Assembly: GCA_023230325.1 (NCBI GenBank) | Contig: JALNXN010000024.1 | Span: 1 to 7,116, forward strand | Direction of reading: 5' to 3' | DNA: 7,116 bases | Origin: an archaeon | GTDB lineage: Archaea > Iainarchaeota > Iainarchaeia > Iainarchaeales > CSSED10-239 | In this document: positions 1 to 7,116 of the stretch, in pieces | Position numbering within the stretch: position 1 is the stretch's first letter | How the letters are laid out: the number at the start of each line of letters is the position of its first letter | Notes under the pieces: model-generated | The model's input: the letters and a program-made list of their open reading frames with translations, nothing else | Databases searched by the model: none | Told to the model about the DNA's origin: nothing | Translations under genes and position numbers: made by a program

Positions 1-10
1 TAATTTTTAA

Positions 11-433
11 TTACAATTTACTGTAAACATCAATATTTTCTTTGTTAATTTCAATAGTAATAAATTTATTTTCACTTTTTAAAGGAAGCTTTTCAGATAA
101 TATTTCTAAATAATTAAAAAAATATCTTCCTTTAAAATGTCTACTTTCATGAGCAAAATAAATATAACCATCATAGTCTTTACCTTCATAAAAAATCTTA
201 ATTTTACAAAGACCAAAGGATTCTGAGAAATCTTTTCCCCAACAAATATCTTTATAAAAATAATCAAAAATAACTGGTTTTATAAAAAAAGGAAAAATAT
301 CTATATTTATTGTTCCTGAATATAATTTACCTAAATTGGGCAAATCTTTAAAAAAAAGTTTTTGTTTTTCTATAGTGTCTGTAGCAAATCCAAAACCTTT
401 CACTATTTTACCATCTATTTTATAGTTATTCAT
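11..433 (-). CDS. Small barrel protein resembling archaeal CTP-dependent riboflavin kinase (DUF120/RibK-like)
   Basis: The 140-residue protein resembles, by eye, the archaeal RibK family, compact barrels that phosphorylate riboflavin with CTP. The matching features are DGKIVKGFGFA near the start (7-17), SGTINIDI (39-46, the family's conserved GT-L/I-N turn), a strand pattern around YDGYIYF (87-93) followed by a histidine (H95 or H99), LEIL (109-112) and a last strand FITIEI (124-129). The order and length agree with the roughly 130-residue family. The segment between 47 and 75 is unusual (FPFFIKPVIFDYFY), however, and the glycine-rich early loop is less complete than in true kinases. It may therefore be a divergent or non-catalytic member with another ligand. 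No riboflavin genes are nearby. The gene follows copy C of the helicase-end repeat. A longer start at 445 is possible but has no ribosome binding site. The gene is complete; its TAA is at 13-11. Confidence 0.75.
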   Translation of the reverse strand: MNNYKIDGKIVKGFGFATDTIEKQKLFFKDLPNLGKLYSGTINIDIFPFFIKPVIFDYFYKDICWGKDFSESFGLCKIKIFYEGKDYDGYIYFAHESRHFKGRYFFNYLEILSEKLPLKSENKFITIEINKENIDVYSKL

Positions 434-437
434 AATT

Positions 438-442
438 TCACC
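438..442 (-). promoter_or_regulatory. Ribosome binding site choosing the internal ATG
   Basis: The minus strand reads GGTGA followed by four bases and ATG at 433. The alternative in-frame ATG at 445 has no such motif upstream. This favours 433 as the start and makes the first four codons of the longer reading part of the leader. The spacing is short, so the choice is not certain. Confidence 0.5.
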
Positions 443-459
443 CATTTATTATTAAATAT

Positions 460-507
460 TTATTCTTTCCACTTCGGGCAGTAAAACTTATACCCACAAA
501 ATTTATT
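460..507 (-). repeat. Displaced helicase 3'-end remnant (copy C)
   Basis: The minus strand from 507 to 460 reads NKFCGYKFYCPKWKE then TAA, again in the helicase C-terminal frame, with a TAA (510-508) directly upstream. The 35-base core at 465-499 differs from the in-place copy at a single base (A to C on the plus strand, a silent proline codon change). It begins only nine bases past the stop of the 205-residue nuclease gene and ends some 26 bases before the next start codon. Copies B and C share the WKE ending, whereas the intact gene ends WKVE. Confidence 0.88.
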
Positions 508-516
508 TTATTAAAA

Positions 517-1134
517 CTATTTTACTTTTATAACAAAATATTTCAAATTATTTTTAATTAGTTTCCAATCTATTTTATAATTTTGTTTTAAACATATAAC
601 TTTATCTTTTTTTCCTGTTGGTTTTTTAATACGCGTAATAAATTCTTTCTTTTTTCGAAACCAATAATAAATTGATCCTTTTTTTCCTTCAGAACCCCAA
701 AAATTTGGATCATCTGCAAATACAATAAATAAATTTTCTTTGTATCCTTCTTTAGTTAATTGTTCTAAAAACTTTAAATCTTTAGCAAAACTAAACATTT
801 GTTCAGGATATTGTCCATTAATAGGATATTTTAATTCAATTGCTAATTTATTTTTAAATAAACCTTTATCTTCAGTAAAAATTACTAAATCTATCTCTTT
901 TTTTTCAAAGTTAGTTTTATTAATTTTTTTATTAAAACAAGTTATATTTCTTTCTAATTGTATTTTATAACTTGGGGGTAATTTGGATCTAAGGAAAATA
1001 GCTAATTCAAATTGAATACTAGCTTCATTATAAATTTCAATTTGTTTATTTCTAATAAGTTCAATGAAATCAGGTATTAAATTATAAATATATCCACTAA
1101 TATTTTTTTCAATTAATATTTTTAATTTAGTCAT
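517..1134 (-). CDS. PD-(D/E)XK-fold nuclease-like protein
   Basis: The 205-residue protein carries a recognisable PD-(D/E)XK core. A conserved glutamate sits in the N-terminal helix (E37 in NEASIQFELAIFLR), an acidic strand follows (EIDLVIF, D82), then the E-x-K strand (AIELKYP, E100 and K102) and a following helix with Q112 and D119 (PEQMFSFAKDLKFLEQL). All the expected metal-binding and catalytic positions are present, so it could cleave DNA. The C-terminal third is strongly basic (for example WFRKKKEF and KKPTGKKDK) and may bind nucleic acid. No partner, methyltransferase or specificity domain accompanies it. It stands alone between two helicase-end remnants, with copy B just upstream of its start and copy C just after its stop. 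The ATG at 1134 lacks a clear ribosome binding site, so translation may be leaderless or weak. It may be a restriction-like or defence nuclease; the exact family was not identified. Confidence 0.85.
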   Translation of the reverse strand: MTKLKILIEKNISGYIYNLIPDFIELIRNKQIEIYNEASIQFELAIFLRSKLPPSYKIQLERNITCFNKKINKTNFEKKEIDLVIFTEDKGLFKNKLAIELKYPINGQYPEQMFSFAKDLKFLEQLTKEGYKENLFIVFADDPNFWGSEGKKGSIYYWFRKKKEFITRIKKPTGKKDKVICLKQNYKIDWKLIKNNLKYFVIKVK

Positions 1135-1161
1135 ATTTAGTCCGTATTAATTTTAATAATT

Positions 1162-1206
1162 TTCACTCATTCTTTCCACTTAGGACAGTAAAACTTAAAC
1201 CCTTAA
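1162..1206 (-). repeat. Displaced helicase 3'-end remnant (copy B)
   Basis: The minus strand from 1202 to 1167 reads GFKFYCPKWKE then TGA, in the same frame as the helicase C-terminus. A TAA (1205-1203) lies directly upstream, so it is a relic, not a translated gene. Over the 35-base core (1172-1206) it differs from the in-place copy at four positions. The shared TTCACTC just beyond the stop (1162-1168) shows that homology includes non-coding sequence. It lies between the end of the four-gene block and the lone nuclease gene that starts at 1134. Confidence 0.85.
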
Positions 1207-1224
1207 AATATTAAAAATAAATGA

Positions 1225-1245
1225 ATAAGGTATAAAATACCTTAT
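1225..1245 (-). terminator. Hairpin terminator after the 63-codon gene
   Basis: A perfect 9-bp inverted repeat, ATAAGGTAT and ATACCTTAT with a three-base loop, begins seven bases after the TAA at 1252-1254. On the transcribed strand it is followed by a T-rich run (TTCATTTATTTTTAATATTTT). The stem holds only two G-C pairs, so it is weak as an intrinsic terminator. Its position between the operon end and repeat copy B fits the end of a transcription unit. Confidence 0.55.
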
Positions 1246-1251
1246 AAGTCT

Positions 1252-1443
1252 TTATTTTCTAGAGTATTTTACATCCTCCCTTTCTAAAATATCAATTACT
1301 TTTGATACATACGAAGAATCAACCTCAATTATCAAAGGTTGCAACGAACTTACCTTTGCACTATAAACACTATTTATTTTAGATACAATATTATTTTTCT
1401 TAAATTCAGGTGTAGATCTATCAATTTCTATTTTAACTAACAT
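1252..1443 (-). CDS. Free-standing 63-residue paralogue of the membrane protein's C-terminal domain
   Basis: This small soluble protein has no recognised family name. Its pattern of a strand (LVKIEID), a helix, two strands (AKVSSLQ, PLIIEVD), a helix (YVSKVIDILERED) and a last strand (KYSRK) suggests a ferredoxin-like fold. That fold is shared by ACT domains and I9-type protease propeptides. It aligns with residues 163-210 of the preceding protein with one gap and about 16 identities, so it is a real duplicated unit rather than a chance reading frame. The ATG is preceded by a strong GGAGG eight bases upstream (1452-1456). The gene starts 19 bases after the stop of the 210-residue protein and is followed by a hairpin, so it ends the operon. 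Inference: it may bind the same partner as the membrane-anchored copy, or pair with it. I see no catalytic motif. Confidence 0.8.
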   Translation of the reverse strand: MLVKIEIDRSTPEFKKNNIVSKINSVYSAKVSSLQPLIIEVDSSYVSKVIDILEREDVKYSRK

Positions 1444-1462
1444 AATTTATTCCTCCAAAACT

Positions 1463-2095
1463 TTATTTTTTTTCATATTTTATGTTTTCTTTCTCAAATA
1501 ATTCTAAAAGATTACTTAATTGTGAGGAATTAATTTCAACAATAAATGGACTAATTGATTTAATCTTTGAAGAATTAATATTACTTATTTTTTGAGTAAG
1601 TATATTTTTTTCATTTTTTAATAATCTTCCTTTAATTTGAAATATTGATGTACTTTGATTATTATGTAAATCAACATTTTTAGAAGACTCCTTTGATATT
1701 TTAGATATTTTTTTATAAGCACTATAAGCCATAGCACCAGTTAACAATGGATTTTCTTTAGTAAATTCAGAAAATTTTGATTTGTCACCCTTTTTTTTAT
1801 GTGTCACATATTTATAAGCACCATATGCTAAAATACCATCATGAACATCAATATAACTCTCATCTTTATCTTTATTATAAAAAGGATTACCAAAAACCTT
1901 TGAAATACCAATAGATAGAAGGAAAATACTTATAATCATTAATACTATTATAAACTCAGAAACATTATCTCCTTGAGATGACATTCCAATAATACTAACT
2001 ATAAAAAGACCTATACCTACTAATAGTAAGAAAATCCATCTAAATCTTTTTTCAGGATCTGTTTCTTTTGTGTTCATATATCTTTTGAAAGTCAT
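1463..2095 (-). CDS. Two-helix membrane protein with a C-terminal ferredoxin-like domain, nuclease partner candidate
   Basis: The family is not recognised. The 210-residue protein starts with a basic stretch, then two transmembrane helices at about 20-39 and 48-68 separated by a short SSQGDNVSE loop. This predicts both ends in the cytoplasm. Residues 87-102 and 120-135 are two related small-residue/aromatic segments (GILAYGAYKYV and GAMAYSAYKKI). The C-terminal ~60 residues (about 151-210) look like a beta-alpha-beta-beta-alpha-beta unit ending in PFIVEINSSQLSNLLELF and KYEKK. About 38% of this part is identical, by eye, to the 63-residue protein encoded next. The start codon overlaps the stop of the DUF262-DUF1524 gene by four bases, with GTGAT five bases upstream, which supports tight coupling. 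Inference: it tethers or senses for the nuclease at the membrane. A separate housekeeping role cannot be ruled out. Confidence 0.85.
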   Translation of the reverse strand: MTFKRYMNTKETDPEKRFRWIFLLLVGIGLFIVSIIGMSSQGDNVSEFIIVLMIISIFLLSIGISKVFGNPFYNKDKDESYIDVHDGILAYGAYKYVTHKKKGDKSKFSEFTKENPLLTGAMAYSAYKKISKISKESSKNVDLHNNQSTSIFQIKGRLLKNEKNILTQKISNINSSKIKSISPFIVEINSSQLSNLLELFEKENIKYEKK

Positions 2096-3747
2096 AAATT
2101 ATCACTATTTATTATTTTATTAAATTCAGAATGCAAAATTTTAGTTCTTTCTTCAATAAATTGTTCAAAATTTTCTATTTTATATAACTCTTTATTTAAA
2201 GGTAGATAATTCTTATTAAGATATGTTTCATCTCTTGTATTTATCCATTCCTCAAATTTAATATTATTTTTAGTTTCATTGTCATTTGAAGATAATATTT
2301 GTAGATTTCCAATATTATTAATTAAACTATCTGAAAATTTATTTTTTAAAAGACTTTTTGGAAAAATATGATCCACATGAGGAATTGAATATTTATTATT
2401 AGAACTAAAATTGAAATCAGGATACAATAGACTTAATAATAAAAAGTGTTTTGTATCTCTGTAATTAATTTTTGAAAAATCATTAAAATTTAAAGAAATA
2501 CTTTTTCCTGAAGGTAATGAATTATTTAAATCATCTAATGGAAATTCCAAAGAGCTATTATTTTTTATTACATCTCTAAATCTTTTTAATAACTCATCAG
2601 TTTGTCCACTAAATATATTTGTAATTAAAATTGTTAACAACCATTTTTTAATCTTTTTTGTATTTAAAAGATTATTTTTATCTAAAGAGGTATATGATTT
2701 AAAATTATTTTTAAATGTAAAATAAATAATAGGAATTATTGCGTTATTACTGGTCAACATTCTTTTTGAATTAATACCAAAATTTTTTAATAAATCAATA
2801 GTAGTTATGATACTATCTTTAATTTTAAGCCAATTATTTTCAATTAAAGAAATATTTTGAATACCAAAATTATTTACACTATATTTTACATCTTTTTCAA
2901 TTAAAACCAAACAAGTTTTTAATATAAAATCATGATTAAAATTAAAAGAATCATTATTTATAGTATTTAATAAATCTTTAAATTCAGTATAAGCATCTTC
3001 ATTAGACCATCTTAATTTTATTATTGAAAATAATAAATCTGCTTTACTTAATTTTGTTCCACCAGAATTAGTTCTTATAAAAATATCTAAAACTTTATCA
3101 TAATTATCTTCTTTTTCAAGATAATAATTAATAATATCGTCATTACCACAAATAAAATTTAGTTTTTTAATGTTTTTTTCAAGTAATTTTAATTGTGAAC
3201 CTAAAAGCTTATCATTATAATTTTCTTTAAGTTCTTCAACATAATCAAATAATTTATCACTATTTAATAGTGCAAAGTTTTTTACCTTCACCCATAATAT
3301 ATTATTTTCAAAAATAACATCTTCTTTTGATTTAATAAACTTTGACTCATAAATTAATTCTTCATCAGTATATATTTCTTTATTTTCACACAACACATTT
3401 AAATATAATTCTTTACCATTATAACTCCCTTTTAAACCTATTAAAAAAGATTGAAGTCTTTGTTGTCCATCTAAAACTAAATAATATTCATCTTTTGAAT
3501 TATCAGTAGATGTTTCACTTTGTTTATTTTTAGTAAAATCAGTAATAAATTTTATTTTTGAAATATCATATTCTTTTTTAACTTTCCAGAATAAAAAAGT
3601 TCCAATTGGATAACCTCTTAATAGTGAATCATATAATTTATAGATTTGCTCTTCATTCCAAACCATACTTCTTTGTATATGAGGTAAATAATAATTACGA
3701 TCTATTTCATTAACAACTTCTTTTATACTTATTTTTGAATAACTCAT
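2092..3747 (-). CDS. DUF262-DUF1524 (GmrSD-like) HNH nuclease
   Basis: The 551-residue protein has the architecture of GmrSD-family, type IV-like restriction enzymes. In that family an NTP-using DUF262 (ParB/Srx-fold) half controls an HNH half that cuts modified or foreign DNA; SspE and BrxU are characterised relatives. Residues 21-30 read LPHIQRSMVW and 41-54 contain LRGYPIGTFLFW. The signature DGQQR is at 93-97 and the second DUF262 motif FIRTNSGGTKLSKADL at 223-238. The C-terminal DUF1524 nuclease motif is intact: PHVDHIFPKS at 456-465, then NIGNLQIL around 478-485 and NETKNN at 490-495. The ATG at 3747 has AGGTGG seven bases upstream. The stop overlaps the start of the 210-residue membrane protein gene (ATGA), so the two are probably translated together. 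Both active-site regions look complete, so activity is expected. The substrate, such as a particular DNA modification, cannot be read from the sequence. Confidence 0.93.
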   Translation of the reverse strand: MSYSKISIKEVVNEIDRNYYLPHIQRSMVWNEEQIYKLYDSLLRGYPIGTFLFWKVKKEYDISKIKFITDFTKNKQSETSTDNSKDEYYLVLDGQQRLQSFLIGLKGSYNGKELYLNVLCENKEIYTDEELIYESKFIKSKEDVIFENNILWVKVKNFALLNSDKLFDYVEELKENYNDKLLGSQLKLLEKNIKKLNFICGNDDIINYYLEKEDNYDKVLDIFIRTNSGGTKLSKADLLFSIIKLRWSNEDAYTEFKDLLNTINNDSFNFNHDFILKTCLVLIEKDVKYSVNNFGIQNISLIENNWLKIKDSIITTIDLLKNFGINSKRMLTSNNAIIPIIYFTFKNNFKSYTSLDKNNLLNTKKIKKWLLTILITNIFSGQTDELLKRFRDVIKNNSSLEFPLDDLNNSLPSGKSISLNFNDFSKINYRDTKHFLLLSLLYPDFNFSSNNKYSIPHVDHIFPKSLLKNKFSDSLINNIGNLQILSSNDNETKNNIKFEEWINTRDETYLNKNYLPLNKELYKIENFEQFIEERTKILHSEFNKIINSDNL

Positions 3748-3807
3748 ATCTAGCCCACCTTCAATTTAATATTTTTATTTATTTTTACCACAAAATCAAT
3801 TTTTAAA

Positions 3808-3835
3808 ATTATATTTTTATTCAACTTAGTCTAAA
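3808..3835 (-). promoter_or_regulatory. Candidate promoter for the DUF262 operon
   Basis: On the minus strand TATAAT (3813-3808) lies 16 bases after TTTAGA (3835-3830) and about 60 bases before the ATG at 3747. In a bacterium this could be a -10 with a weak -35. In an archaeon the AAAATATAAT stretch could serve as a TATA box. The surrounding 128-base gap is extremely AT-rich, so chance matches are likely. Confidence 0.3.
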
Positions 3836-3875
3836 CTATTCTACACTATATTTGATATTATTTATATTCAAAGGA

Positions 3876-4106
3876 TTAATTTTCTTTATCTGCTAAATTT
3901 GCATATGCTTTATTTTTATTTAAACTATTAGCAACTACACCTAAAGCCACAATAAAAAATATAATTAAATATATCCACATATTACTTGGATTTAAAGGTT
4001 TTAAAATCCATATATAAAATGCAATAGTTCCAATAATTGAAATAACAAGACTAATTATTGAATTTTTTTGAGAATTTGTTAAACTTTTTTCATTTATGTT
4101 AACCAT
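3876..4106 (-). CDS. Small two-helix membrane protein, unknown function
   Basis: I do not recognise a family for this 76-residue protein. Two hydrophobic segments are clear, at about residues 16-35 and 43-60, joined by a short KPLNPSN turn. The ends are polar and lysine-rich, which suggests both termini are cytoplasmic. The start is set by a near-perfect ribosome binding site five bases upstream. The gene begins 36 bases after the helicase stop, and directly after copy A of the helicase-end repeat, so it is the first gene of the accessory block. It is followed by a 128-base gap with a possible separate promoter. Co-transcription with the helicase, or membership of the DUF262 operon, is therefore possible but not shown. 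It could be a small effector, an anchor for the downstream nuclease, or an unrelated membrane protein. Confidence 0.7.
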   Translation of the reverse strand: MVNINEKSLTNSQKNSIISLVISIIGTIAFYIWILKPLNPSNMWIYLIIFFIVALGVVANSLNKNKAYANLADKEN

Positions 4107-4111
4107 TTTTT

Positions 4112-4119
4112 AATCACCT
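4112..4119 (-). promoter_or_regulatory. Ribosome binding site AGGTGATT
   Basis: The minus strand reads AGGTGATT five bases before the ATG at 4106. It matches the rRNA 3' end (complement of ATCACCT) over seven bases. It is the strongest support that the 76-codon membrane protein gene is real. The AGGTGAT register, rather than AGGAGG, is common in methanogenic archaea, a weak hint to the host. Confidence 0.7.
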
Positions 4120-4141
4120 AATTTATAATTTCTTACCTATA

Positions 4142-4185
4142 TTCACTCTACTTTCCACTTAGGGCAGTAAAACTTATACCCACAA
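4142..4185 (-). repeat. In-place copy (A) of the helicase 3'-end repeat
   Basis: This is the source copy of a direct repeat found again at 1162-1206 and 460-507. The 35-base core at 4151-4185 encodes the last helicase residues from the third cluster cysteine through the final valine (CGYKFYCPKWKV). It differs from copy C at one base and from copy B at four. Seven bases at the stop (4142-4148) are also shared with copy B, so the homology runs past the coding end. Confidence 0.9.
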
Positions 4186-7116
4186 TACTTACATTTATCC
4201 TTACTATCAGCAACTGCAAAATCACTCTCATAGTCTTTTTCAATATTTTTAAAGGTGTCCAATATTTCCTGTCTTAATTCAGTTAATGTAAAATTTGACT
4301 TTACATTACAACCTAAAAGAGCAGTTACCTCATCTTGATTATGATTATCAACAATCATCTCAACAGGAGATTCTAACTTTAAAAGATCTAAAACTAATTT
4401 GTTTATCTTATATCCTTGAGCTATTAACCCTAGAGCATAAATACCAAGCTGTATTCTTCTTTTTTCAACAGGTATTGCACTTTTATTTGTCTTATAATCA
4501 ATAATATCAACAAAACCCTTTAAAGGAGAAGAAAGATAATCAACTCTGTCAACTTTTCCATATATCTTATAATCATCTAAAGTTAAATTAATATCAATTT
4601 CAGTTTCTGTCTTCTCACAAGATTTTATTTCTTCTAAGTTTCTTTTTAAAAATACCTTACAAAGCTCAAGAGTCTCTTTATGGTCTTTTTCAGAAATCTT
4701 ACCTGAAAATTCATTTTTTAAAAGCTCTTTTGAAAGAGTTTCAATATCCTCAAAAGAAGAAAGCTTATTCTTTATGAAAAGCTCTAAGATCCTATGAAGA
4801 TAACTACCCTTAGAAAGAGCAGAACCAGAACCCTCTTCTTCATCCACTTCATCAAACTCACCAATAGCTGGCATTCTATATATATTTTTAATTTCAAATA
4901 GTTTAGGGCAATGCATATAATCCATGATTGAAGAAGGACTAAATGTAAATTCTTCTTTATTAAACTTAATTGAGTTTTTATTTTCTTGATATTTAATAAC
5001 ATCTTTAGATAGTTCTTCTTTGTTTATTATTACTTTATTTATTGTTTCTTGAATATCTAAGGTATTGCTTCTTACTGCAAAATATTTACTTAGTCTTAAG
5101 ACAAGAGAATTAAGGTCATCTGAATCAAGAGAATCTATTAATTGCTCTTTTAACAATGATTTATATTTTTCAGACTTTGAGCTTGGAGCAATTATTGTTG
5201 AAAGAGTATCAGTGTCTTCAGTAAAAGAAATATTTTCATTTTCTAAATAATTAATCTCATCTAAAAATACTGAATTTTTAGAAGAATTGGGCTCAGAGTT
5301 ATAGGATTTTGCAAAAGTTAAGATTAAATCCTCTTCAGCTCTAGTAAATCCAACATAACAAAGACGTCTTTCATCATAGAGAAGTATTTCTTTTTCATAG
5401 GCTTTAAGAGCATCAGCTATTGCTTTTTCTAATTTTTCAGGAAGGAGATCTTTATTTATCTCTTTTACTCTTTCAATCTCTTTTTTTCTATCTTCAATTA
5501 ATTCCTTTGGAATTAATGGTTCATTATGTGTTCTATCTATTGGAAATCTTTTTTCAGCTAAGTTACTTAAGATAACTTTCTTAAACTGAAGTCCTTTACA
5601 TGCATGTATTGTCATTAATCTAACAGCATTAAGGTTTGATACTTTACTTGAATCTATGTTTACTTCAAGTTTATCAAGAATTTCTAAATATTCAATAAAT
5701 GAAAATAAGTCTTTATCATGAAATTCATAGTAGTTTTTTGTAATTTCATAAAAGCTTTTTAAATTAAGTAAATGTTCTGTGTTTTCAATAGTTCTCTTAT
5801 AAGTAAACCTTCTGTTAAGACCAGTAATCTCAAAGATGTCTAAAACAAGAGAAGGTAGTGGTTTATTTGAGATTTTTGTTAAAGCTCTTAGTTTTTCAAC
5901 TACCCTAGTTACTATTTTTTGTGCATTTTCACTTAAAAGAACAGATGACTCTAGTAATGCTTGGTCAATTGATAGGTTTTCATTCCTTTTTGATTTTAAA
6001 TATCTTCCAATCTTAATTGAGTCTTCTGGTTCTAGAGTGTTTTCATAATGGAAAAGATACCACCATGCTTGTTCACCAGTTGCTGTTCTGTTAATTAAGT
6101 TGTTTAATATTGAAAGGTAACAAACAACTGTTTTAATCTCAGCATACTCCAAAAGATTTGTTTTACCTGCATAGGTAAAAGGTATTTTTTTAAGCTCTAA
6201 GGCTTGTTTTATAACTTCAGCTTGTTTATGTGTTCTTATCAAGACTGCTATTTGGTTTAAAGGAGTGTTATTTTCAATTTCTTTTTCAACTTCATCAGAG
6301 ATAAACCTTGCTTCCTCATATTGATCATTAAAAGAAAAGACTTTTACTTTATCTCCCTCTCTATCTTCTGCATTTTGAACTTTTTGACATTCGTTTGAGT
6401 CTTTTTCAAAGTTATTTTTAATTAGGTCATATGCTATGTTTAGAACTGTGTTTGGAGATCTATAAGACTTTGTTAAATTAAAAACATCTGTTTCTTTAAC
6501 AACTTTAAAATTTTCTTCAAAGTTTTTAAAACTATCTTTATAAGCTCCTCTAAAACCATAGATTGATTGATTTAAGTCTCCAACAACAGTAATGTTTCTA
6601 TGTTCTGCTATATATTTTATTAAATCAAACTGTAGTTTGTTTGTATCTTGAAATTCATCTACAAAAACATATTTGTATTGTTCTGTGTATTTAGAGGATC
6701 CATTTATTGTAAAGTATTCTAAGACTAGTTTATTTAAATCTCCATAATCTAGATAATTCTTTTCACGTTTAAAAGTTTCATATTTTTCCCAAGTTTCTAT
6801 AAATTTATTAAATTTTATATAATCATCATAAGTACTAATAAAGCTTTTTAGTTCTTTTTTATATTCCTTTGATGATTTTCTTACATCTTTATCATCATGT
6901 TTAACTTCTTTAAAAATAGTTCTTATTTCTTTTTGTTTTTCTAAATAGAATTGTTCTAGAGAGTCAATAGTTGTAGATTCTAATAGTTTTTTTAAAAGAT
7001 TGTTTTCAATGTATTCTTTTAGATTATCTATGGTTATTCCAAAATCTTTACAGTTTTGGATGGTGTTTATATATCTATTAGAGTAATAAGGTAAGATACC
7101 AAAGTATTTTGTAACT
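4143..7116 (-). CDS. UvrD/PcrA-type helicase fused to a RecB/Cas4-like Fe-S nuclease domain (5' end cut by window)
   Basis: An ATP-driven 3'-5' DNA translocase joined to a nuclease is expected to act in double-strand-break end processing, as AddAB/RecBCD-type enzymes do. The frame is open from 7115 to TGA at 4143 (990 residues present). The amino-terminal part with the Q motif and Walker A is off the right edge. Visible in order, numbered within the fragment: motif II VDEFQDTN (about 152), motif III VVGDLNQSIYGFRGA (about 177-191), SYRSP (about 216), IAVLIRT (about 288), motif V TIHACKGLQF (about 498) and motif VI ERRLCYVGFTRA (about 578). The nuclease domain begins at FSPSSIMDYMHCPKLF (about 722), with GSYLHRI, GKVDRVDY, IDYKTNK (about 871) and QLGIYALG. 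Four cysteines, at 736 and then 975, 978 and 984 (C-x2-C-x5-C), match the AddB/Cas4 iron-sulfur arrangement. The TTG at 6242-6240 is an internal leucine codon, not a start. Base composition is less AT-rich than in the downstream genes. The exact family (AddA/AddB/AdnB-like or archaeal helicase-nuclease) is uncertain; the domain assignment is firm. Confidence 0.95.
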   Translation of the reverse strand, partial: VTKYFGILPYYSNRYINTIQNCKDFGITIDNLKEYIENNLLKKLLESTTIDSLEQFYLEKQKEIRTIFKEVKHDDKDVRKSSKEYKKELKSFISTYDDYIKFNKFIETWEKYETFKREKNYLDYGDLNKLVLEYFTINGSSKYTEQYKYVFVDEFQDTNKLQFDLIKYIAEHRNITVVGDLNQSIYGFRGAYKDSFKNFEENFKVVKETDVFNLTKSYRSPNTVLNIAYDLIKNNFEKDSNECQKVQNAEDREGDKVKVFSFNDQYEEARFISDEVEKEIENNTPLNQIAVLIRTHKQAEVIKQALELKKIPFTYAGKTNLLEYAEIKTVVCYLSILNNLINRTATGEQAWWYLFHYENTLEPEDSIKIGRYLKSKRNENLSIDQALLESSVLLSENAQKIVTRVVEKLRALTKISNKPLPSLVLDIFEITGLNRRFTYKRTIENTEHLLNLKSFYEITKNYYEFHDKDLFSFIEYLEILDKLEVNIDSSKVSNLNAVRLMTIHACKGLQFKKVILSNLAEKRFPIDRTHNEPLIPKELIEDRKKEIERVKEINKDLLPEKLEKAIADALKAYEKEILLYDERRLCYVGFTRAEEDLILTFAKSYNSEPNSSKNSVFLDEINYLENENISFTEDTDTLSTIIAPSSKSEKYKSLLKEQLIDSLDSDDLNSLVLRLSKYFAVRSNTLDIQETINKVIINKEELSKDVIKYQENKNSIKFNKEEFTFSPSSIMDYMHCPKLFEIKNIYRMPAIGEFDEVDEEEGSGSALSKGSYLHRILELFIKNKLSSFEDIETLSKELLKNEFSGKISEKDHKETLELCKVFLKRNLEEIKSCEKTETEIDINLTLDDYKIYGKVDRVDYLSSPLKGFVDIIDYKTNKSAIPVEKRRIQLGIYALGLIAQGYKINKLVLDLLKLESPVEMIVDNHNQDEVTALLGCNVKSNFTLTELRQEILDTFKNIEKDYESDFAVADSKDKCKYCGYKFYCPKWKVE

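What the first reader, a model, noticed from the sequence alone, without database searches (positions are those of the whole stretch)
460..4185. Three direct copies of the helicase gene's 3' end separate accessory gene blocks
The last ~35-45 bases of the helicase-nuclease gene (4142-4185) recur in the same orientation at 1162-1206 and 460-507. Core identity is 31/35 and 34/35. Both downstream copies keep the helicase reading frame and a stop codon, and each is followed within about 26-35 bases by a new gene. The layout is host end, four-gene block (~2.98 kb), host end, one-gene block (~0.71 kb), host end, one gene. This fits repeated insertion of cassettes at the 3' end of a conserved gene, each bringing or restoring that end, as mobile elements do at tRNA or gene 3' ends. 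It also fits homologous acquisition from related strains that carry different genes at the same spot. No recombinase gene is in the window. The site would be a non-tRNA hotspot within the codons for the Fe-S cysteines.
Basis: partly seen in the sequence, partly recalled or inferred. Interest (0 to 1): 0.8.

Follow-up and report, generated by a model that had tools for sequence, protein, structure and literature searches.

The report
Gene-end docking site for restriction genes
In what is probably an uncultured DPANN archaeon, the last ~40 letters of a DNA helicase-nuclease gene recur twice behind that gene, each copy followed by other genes, some of them likely anti-virus restriction genes, so this gene end probably serves as a spot where such genes are inserted and swapped between strains.

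Summary
The repeats are real. The helicase gene's 3' end recurs in the same orientation at 460-504 and 1167-1202 (33/35 and 30/35 identical; best of 2000 shuffles 24/35). No further helicase homology lies upstream of the copies, so they are not decayed paralogues.

Both copies end in KWKE-stop, the ending of the two nearest homologues and of no other among 120 listed; the window's own helicase ends KWKVE. And that helicase is a mosaic: 97.8% identical to its nearest homologue over 823 residues, then 74.1% over the last 166, so the gene end was probably exchanged from a more distant donor.

Cargo: a GmrSD/BrxU-type protein, a predicted nuclease of a widely scattered family, and unknowns. The helicase is sparse in sampled DPANN genomes, and in one relative it directly follows BREX genes.

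Best reading: a gene-3'-end insertion hotspot, akin to archaeal integrated elements and SCC/ECC, with no recombinase in view and reshuffled by homologous exchange. No empty site, second array or linked recombinase was found: DNA of the close relatives was out of reach, and five more distant loci show no second copy.

The parts
4143..7115 (-). Helicase-nuclease gene, last 990 codons (open at the window's end): UvrD-type helicase with C-terminal PD-(D/E)XK nuclease
   Evidence: UvrD_C 153.5 bits, UvrD-helicase 97 bits, PDDEXK_1 82.3 bits
4143..4646 (-). Exchanged 3' segment of the helicase (last ~166 codons), apparently from a more distant donor
   Evidence: window-P0001 805/823 before and 123/166 after residue 824; P0001-P0002 718/822 and 144/166
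4143..4185 (-). Gene-end repeat, the gene's own copy (ends KWKVE-stop)
3876..4106 (-). Block A gene 1, 76 aa, unknown
   Evidence: no Pfam, PADLOC or NCBIfam match; one weak PHROG of unknown function, E 0.037
2092..3747 (-). Block A gene 2, 551 aa, GmrSD-family protein (BrxU-like; PADLOC HEC-05)
   Evidence: GmrSD_N 114.9 bits, GmrSD_C 29 bits; HEC-05 474.5 bits; PDB 7p9k 231.6 bits
1463..2095 (-). Block A gene 3, 210 aa, unknown, 6 homologues found
1252..1443 (-). Block A gene 4, 63 aa, resembles the C-terminus of gene 3
   Evidence: 18/48 identical
1167..1202 (-). Gene-end repeat c2 (GFKFYCPKWKE-stop), between blocks A and B
517..1134 (-). Block B gene, 205 aa, predicted PD-(D/E)XK nuclease of a family found in archaea and bacteria
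460..504 (-). Gene-end repeat c1 (KFCGYKFYCPKWKE-stop), between block B and gene C
11..445 (-). Gene C, 144 aa, unknown
   Evidence: no match; model too poor to use (pLDDT 43.6)

Best explanation
The 3' end of this helicase-nuclease gene is repeated twice behind it between unrelated gene blocks, and it is likely an insertion hotspot where defence-type cassettes have entered at nearly one point about 36-45 bases before the stop codon, each event leaving a copy of the displaced gene end. Shown: the repeats, their near-identical left edge (within about 9 bases) and reading frame, the KWKE ending of both displaced copies, the mosaic helicase, and the family of part of the cargo. Inferred: insertion was by a site-specific (att-like) reaction whose enzyme is not in the window, in at least two rounds; the repeats then served as short homology through which blocks plus the gene's 3' end are exchanged between strains, which would explain the foreign last 166 codons and the KWKVE ending next to block A. 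Because each block starts 14-36 bases after a stop codon and runs in the gene's direction, the cargo would be co-transcribed with the helicase.
For: Repeats far above chance: 33/35 and 30/35 against a shuffle maximum of 24/35. Helicase homology in window 1-4142 stops at the repeats. Both scars end KWKE-stop, as do only P0001 and P0002 among the 120 listed homologues (nine of the 120 are cut short of the motif). Mosaic breakpoint at residue 824, log-likelihood gain 47. Cargo families: GmrSD and a predicted nuclease of a scattered family. Blocks are 19.3-25.5% G+C against 26.7-28.4% in the helicase. Precedents: 14 of 68 thaumarchaeal integrated elements with defined sites lie in 3'-distal ends of protein genes, one replaced the stop codon (PMC6563490 passages); ECC elements at the rlmH 3' end have ~50-base repeats, several attR copies in 16 of 32 (PMC6222049 passages).
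Against: No recombinase in the window; units of 0.7 and 3 kb are small for integrated elements. No second array: five relatives have no downstream copy, and the gene-end pattern occurs once per genome in 3 of 34 and 5 of 371 genomes (three of those five are not this helicase). No viral contig holds the gene-end patterns. A 504-base exchange is not what a site-specific reaction does, so a second process is needed. The proximal scar c2 is more decayed than the distal c1, against simple stacking with the newest block next to the gene. No DNA of P0001 or P0002 was available, and no empty site was seen.
Confidence: 0.45

Rival explanations
1. No site-specific enzyme was ever involved: the restriction-type cassettes inserted with long target duplication, or arrived on strain DNA joined by one homologous crossover in the helicase and one short-homology join at the gene end, leaving the resident end as a scar.
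For: The mosaic shows a homologous-type exchange upstream of block A; there is no recombinase; cargo is of restriction type. Reviews state that some restriction-modification systems insert with long, variable target duplications of the order of 100 bp without a known element (PMC3874152 and PMC3031569 passages).
Against: The two scars begin within about 9 bases of each other, which variable duplications would not predict; 36-45 bases is shorter than the order of 100 bp reported.
Confidence: 0.35
2. The mosaic helicase, and perhaps the array, is a chimera of co-occurring strains made by metagenome assembly.
For: No whole genome is held for the window, which fits an uncultured source. The P0001 cluster has 11 member sequences, so close variants exist in the data.
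Against: The gene end and c1 share no exact word over 24 bases and differ from c2 at 5 of 35, short for assembly words (general knowledge). The chimera would explain the mosaic but hardly the repeats.
Confidence: 0.1
3. The copies are the last remains of tandem full-length helicase paralogues.
For: The copies are in frame and keep a stop.
Against: Helicase homology is confined to 13 and 10 residues, and two paralogues would have had to decay to nearly the same edge while those ends stayed 30-33/35 identical.
Confidence: 0.03

Closest known systems
Archaeal integrated elements at 3'-distal ends of protein genes (Thaumarchaeota; PMC6563490, passages seen)
   Same: Direct repeats of a gene's 3' end flank inserted genes, the reading frame ends in a restored or replaced stop, tandem insertion is reported; att lengths of 29-69 bp (median 45) are quoted there for crenarchaeal elements
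   Different: No integrase or casposase in the window, no inverted terminal repeats looked for beyond, units of only 0.7 and 3 kb, and the target gene is itself accessory
SCCmec / Enterococcus cassette chromosome at the rlmH 3' end (PMC6222049, passages seen)
   Same: Repeated ~50-base gene-end sites downstream of the target gene, several attR copies possible, variable cargo
   Different: No ccrAB recombinases; elements there are 21-78 kb; the target there is a conserved gene
Restriction genes inserted with long target duplication (PMC3874152, PMC3031569, passages seen)
   Same: Restriction-type cargo flanked by a duplicated stretch of the target gene, without a recombinase
   Different: Duplications there are variable and of the order of 100 bp; here two events share nearly the same edge and 36-45 bases
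Rhs orphan toxin modules (PMC3967940, passages seen)
   Same: Displaced 3' fragments of a gene lie downstream, after its end was exchanged by recombination
   Different: There the fragments are toxin domains with immunity genes and share 522 bp; here they are 36-45-base scars before unrelated genes
BREX plus BrxU defence island of plasmid pEFER (PMC8565348, abstract and passages seen)
   Same: A GmrSD-family protein; the same helicase family directly follows BREX genes in L002
   Different: No BREX gene is in the window, and the GmrSD protein was not found in the six helicase-bearing genomes (no positive control)

Membership tests
Integrated element at a gene 3' end (site-specific recombinase type) | Direct repeats of the target gene's end flank the inserted DNA | tested here: met
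Integrated element at a gene 3' end (site-specific recombinase type) | Integrase or other recombinase gene in the element | tested here: not met
   none among matches of the window's proteins; DNA beyond the window's end not available
Integrated element at a gene 3' end (site-specific recombinase type) | Empty site in close relatives | not tested
SCC/ECC cassette chromosome | ccrAB serine recombinases, insertion at rlmH | tested here: not met
   target is a helicase-nuclease gene, no recombinase matched
Integron gene cassette | attC site that folds as a single strand | tested here: not met
   three repeats with flanks, both strands: z-scores -0.72 to 0.73 against shuffles
Restriction cassette with long target duplication | Restriction-type gene flanked by a target duplication | tested here: met
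Restriction cassette with long target duplication | Comparison with an uninterrupted relative shows the duplication arose on insertion | not tested
   no close relative's DNA available
GmrSD-family type IV restriction enzyme (BrxU-like) | GmrSD_N and GmrSD_C domains | tested here: met
   114.9 bits (cut-off 33.2) and 29 bits (cut-off 23); 231.6 bits to 7p9k
GmrSD-family type IV restriction enzyme (BrxU-like) | Cleaves modified DNA | not testable with these tools
   needs the protein
PD-(D/E)XK nuclease (block B protein) | Conserved D...ExK residues | tested here: met
   D82, E100, K102 invariant in 51 sequences
PD-(D/E)XK nuclease (block B protein) | Restriction-endonuclease-like fold | tested here: inconclusive

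The most novel reading that the evidence does not exclude
The helicase gene's own 3' end is a reusable docking site at a defence locus of DPANN archaea: promoterless restriction cassettes, each punctuated by a 36-45-base copy of the gene end, are stacked behind it and swapped between strains by homologous exchange of the gene end plus cassette, with no recombinase of their own. This would be a recombinase-free counterpart of an integron array, read through from a defence gene.
Probability: 0.2. Interest if true: 0.75.

Novelty: new variant of a known kind. Interest (0 to 1): 0.5.

Why it matters
How defence genes gather and turn over without visible mobile elements is an open question. Here one locus, probably of a DPANN archaeon, holds both the scars of past insertions and an exchange of the target gene's end, so the order and route of cassette gain could be read directly from sister strains.

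Tried and rejected
Rejected: chance repeats; full-length paralogue decay; a tRNA or known RNA at the site; foldable attC-like repeats. Led nowhere: viral contigs for the helicase, for two gene-end patterns, for the block B family through P0139 and for GmrSD; plasmids and phages for block B; block B in 371 and 34 DPANN genomes (0 hits at E<=1e-10) and GmrSD in 6 (0 hits), where the tool warns that an empty answer without a positive control shows nothing; the gene C model (pLDDT 43.6). The gene-end pattern occurs once per genome in 3 of 34 and 5 of 371 genomes; at three of the latter five (G040, G292, G294) I saw no helicase-like reading frame, and the reversed control pattern also hit 3 of the 371. 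Two order-level searches added no genome beyond G002, G003 and G054 (3 of 287 each at E<=1e-120). The promoter scan gave 47 sites against a shuffle mean of 39.4 (sd 6.3) and one terminator-like site against 0.3; bacterial patterns, not informative here. tblastn output was cut at 6000 characters and showed rows of the window's own helicase only.

Papers: searches; in the listings (titles and starts of abstracts) I saw none that describes this locus; one search returned none. I saw passages of PMC3031569, PMC4176335, PMC3874152, PMC8565348, PMC3967940, PMC6222049 and PMC6563490 and read none whole; PMC2853133 is not held. The Fe-S role of the C-terminal cysteines is recalled, not tested; a Cas4 model matched residues 946-985 below its cut-off (27.7 bits against 65).

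Full report
WHAT IS THERE. The window carries, on the minus strand, the last 990 codons of a UvrD-type helicase with a C-terminal PD-(D/E)XK nuclease (4143-7115), then a four-gene block A (4106-1252), a one-gene block B (1134-517) and gene C (445-11), all in the helicase's direction. The last bases of the helicase recur twice: c2 at 1167-1202 between A and B, c1 at 460-504 between B and C. In a fixed 35-base register the identities to the gene's own end are 30/35 and 33/35; the best match in 2000 Markov shuffles of window 1-4142, both strands, was 24/35.

NOT A DECAYED PARALOGUE. tblastn of the helicase against window 1-4142 at a very loose threshold gives KFCGYKFYCPKWK at 504-466 (E 1e-4) and GFKFYCPKWK at 1202-1173 (E 0.009); the next rows are at E 2.3 and above (the output was cut and showed rows of the window's own helicase only). 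Upstream of the shared stretch the match to the gene is 17/50 and 15/50, background. The shared stretches of c1 and c2 begin within about 9 bases of each other (39-45 and 36 bases before the end of the stop codon) and both run to a stop in frame.

THE SCARS CARRY THE RESIDENT ENDING. Among the 120 homologues listed, only P0001 and P0002, the two nearest (94% and 85%), end in KWKE (nine of the 120 are cut short of the motif). Both scars end KWKE-stop; the window's helicase ends KWKVE. The scars therefore look like the former gene end and the present gene end looks foreign (inference). c1 reads KFCG as P0002 does, where the window and P0001 read KYCG.

THE HELICASE IS A MOSAIC. On alignment A1 the best single breakpoint between window and P0001 is at residue 824, window position about 4646, log-likelihood gain 47. 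Identity is 805/823 before and 123/166 after. P0001 and P0002 keep the same distance throughout (718/822 and 144/166), while window-P0002 falls from 722/822 to 120/166. The simplest reading is that the window's last 166 codons came from a donor outside the P0001/P0002 pair by homologous exchange. An assembly chimera of strains is not excluded, and only protein sequences were available for the comparison.

THE HELICASE IS PROBABLY NOT A CORE GENE. In the phylum of G001, 14 of 34 genomes have a match at E<=0.001, 3 of them strong (G001, G004, G027, E below 1e-250), the other 11 under 60 bits. In the phylum of G002, 14 of 371 match at E<=1e-60, 3 of them at E<=1e-120 (G002, G003, G054); the other 11 align only within query residues 3-645. 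Genomes are drafts, so absences are not firm. The three loci are titled DPANN group, Woesearchaeota and uncultured archaeon, and named homologues include Woesearchaeota, Nanoarchaeota, Nanobdellota and ainarchaeum, so the window's host is probably DPANN; no genome is held for it. In L002 the gene directly follows BrxC (cut by the locus), PglX, PglZ and BrxL genes; in L003 it is followed by a type III methyltransferase and a ResIII-domain protein; in L001 a 183-aa frame, an M78-peptidase-domain protein and a DUF4411 protein follow; in L035 an AAA_14/DUF4143 protein lies on the other strand. No family search was run on neighbours in L036 and L037. What follows the gene differs among these relatives, but they are about 50% identical at protein level, so that is expected and is weak evidence.

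NO SECOND ARRAY FOUND. In the five relatives with a readable gene end (L001, L002, L003, L035, and L036 with only 702 bases downstream) the best downstream match to the last 39 bases is 20-25, within the range of controls (maxima 23-26). The peptide-level pattern occurs once per genome where it occurs. Viral contigs hold neither gene-end pattern. In L002 a tyrosine recombinase gene (Phage_integrase, 38.5 bits) lies about 1.5 kb beyond the helicase end on the other strand, without a gene-end repeat; it is a lead only.

MECHANISM. The shared left edge, the att-like length and the restored frame favour insertion at one point, as in archaeal elements at gene 3' ends: 14 of 68 thaumarchaeal elements with defined sites, one of which replaced the stop codon, and a tandem pair of casposons (PMC6563490); also SCC/ECC, with several attR copies in 16 of 32 ECC elements (PMC6222049). 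The ~504-base exchange, the missing recombinase and the restriction cargo favour homologous exchange or insertion with long target duplication (PMC3874152, PMC3031569). I commit to a combination: insertion at a fixed gene-end site by an enzyme not in view, then strain-to-strain exchange through the gene end. Against simple stacking, the proximal scar c2 is more decayed than the distal c1.

VERDICT. A real and well-formed array at one locus, of a known general kind (gene 3'-end insertion hotspot) with a new target gene and small recombinase-less restriction cassettes. What is missing is a second example or an empty site.

Noticed in passing
1252-1443 and 1463-2095: The 63-aa protein of block A resembles the C-terminal 48 residues of its 210-aa neighbour (18/48 identical), a small duplication within the block.
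   Followed up: partly
L002:3-15659: The helicase relative directly follows BrxC (cut), PglX, PglZ and BrxL genes, and a tyrosine recombinase gene lies about 1.5 kb beyond its end.
   Followed up: partly
window 517-1134: The block B family (438 homologues in archaea and bacteria) has no Pfam, PADLOC, NCBIfam or PHROG match although it is a predicted nuclease.
   Followed up: partly
L003:9891-11307 and L037 (reverse complement) 4180-5611: Both loci hold, near the helicase, a pair of frames that look alike: a ~340-aa winged-helix-like protein and a ~140-aa PIN-like protein (by eye, not searched).
   Followed up: no
L007 (G004:C109:715-3591) and L020 (G027:C4:2-265): One relative's helicase has an in-frame TGA, and another genome holds a second helicase fragment at a contig edge.
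   Followed up: no
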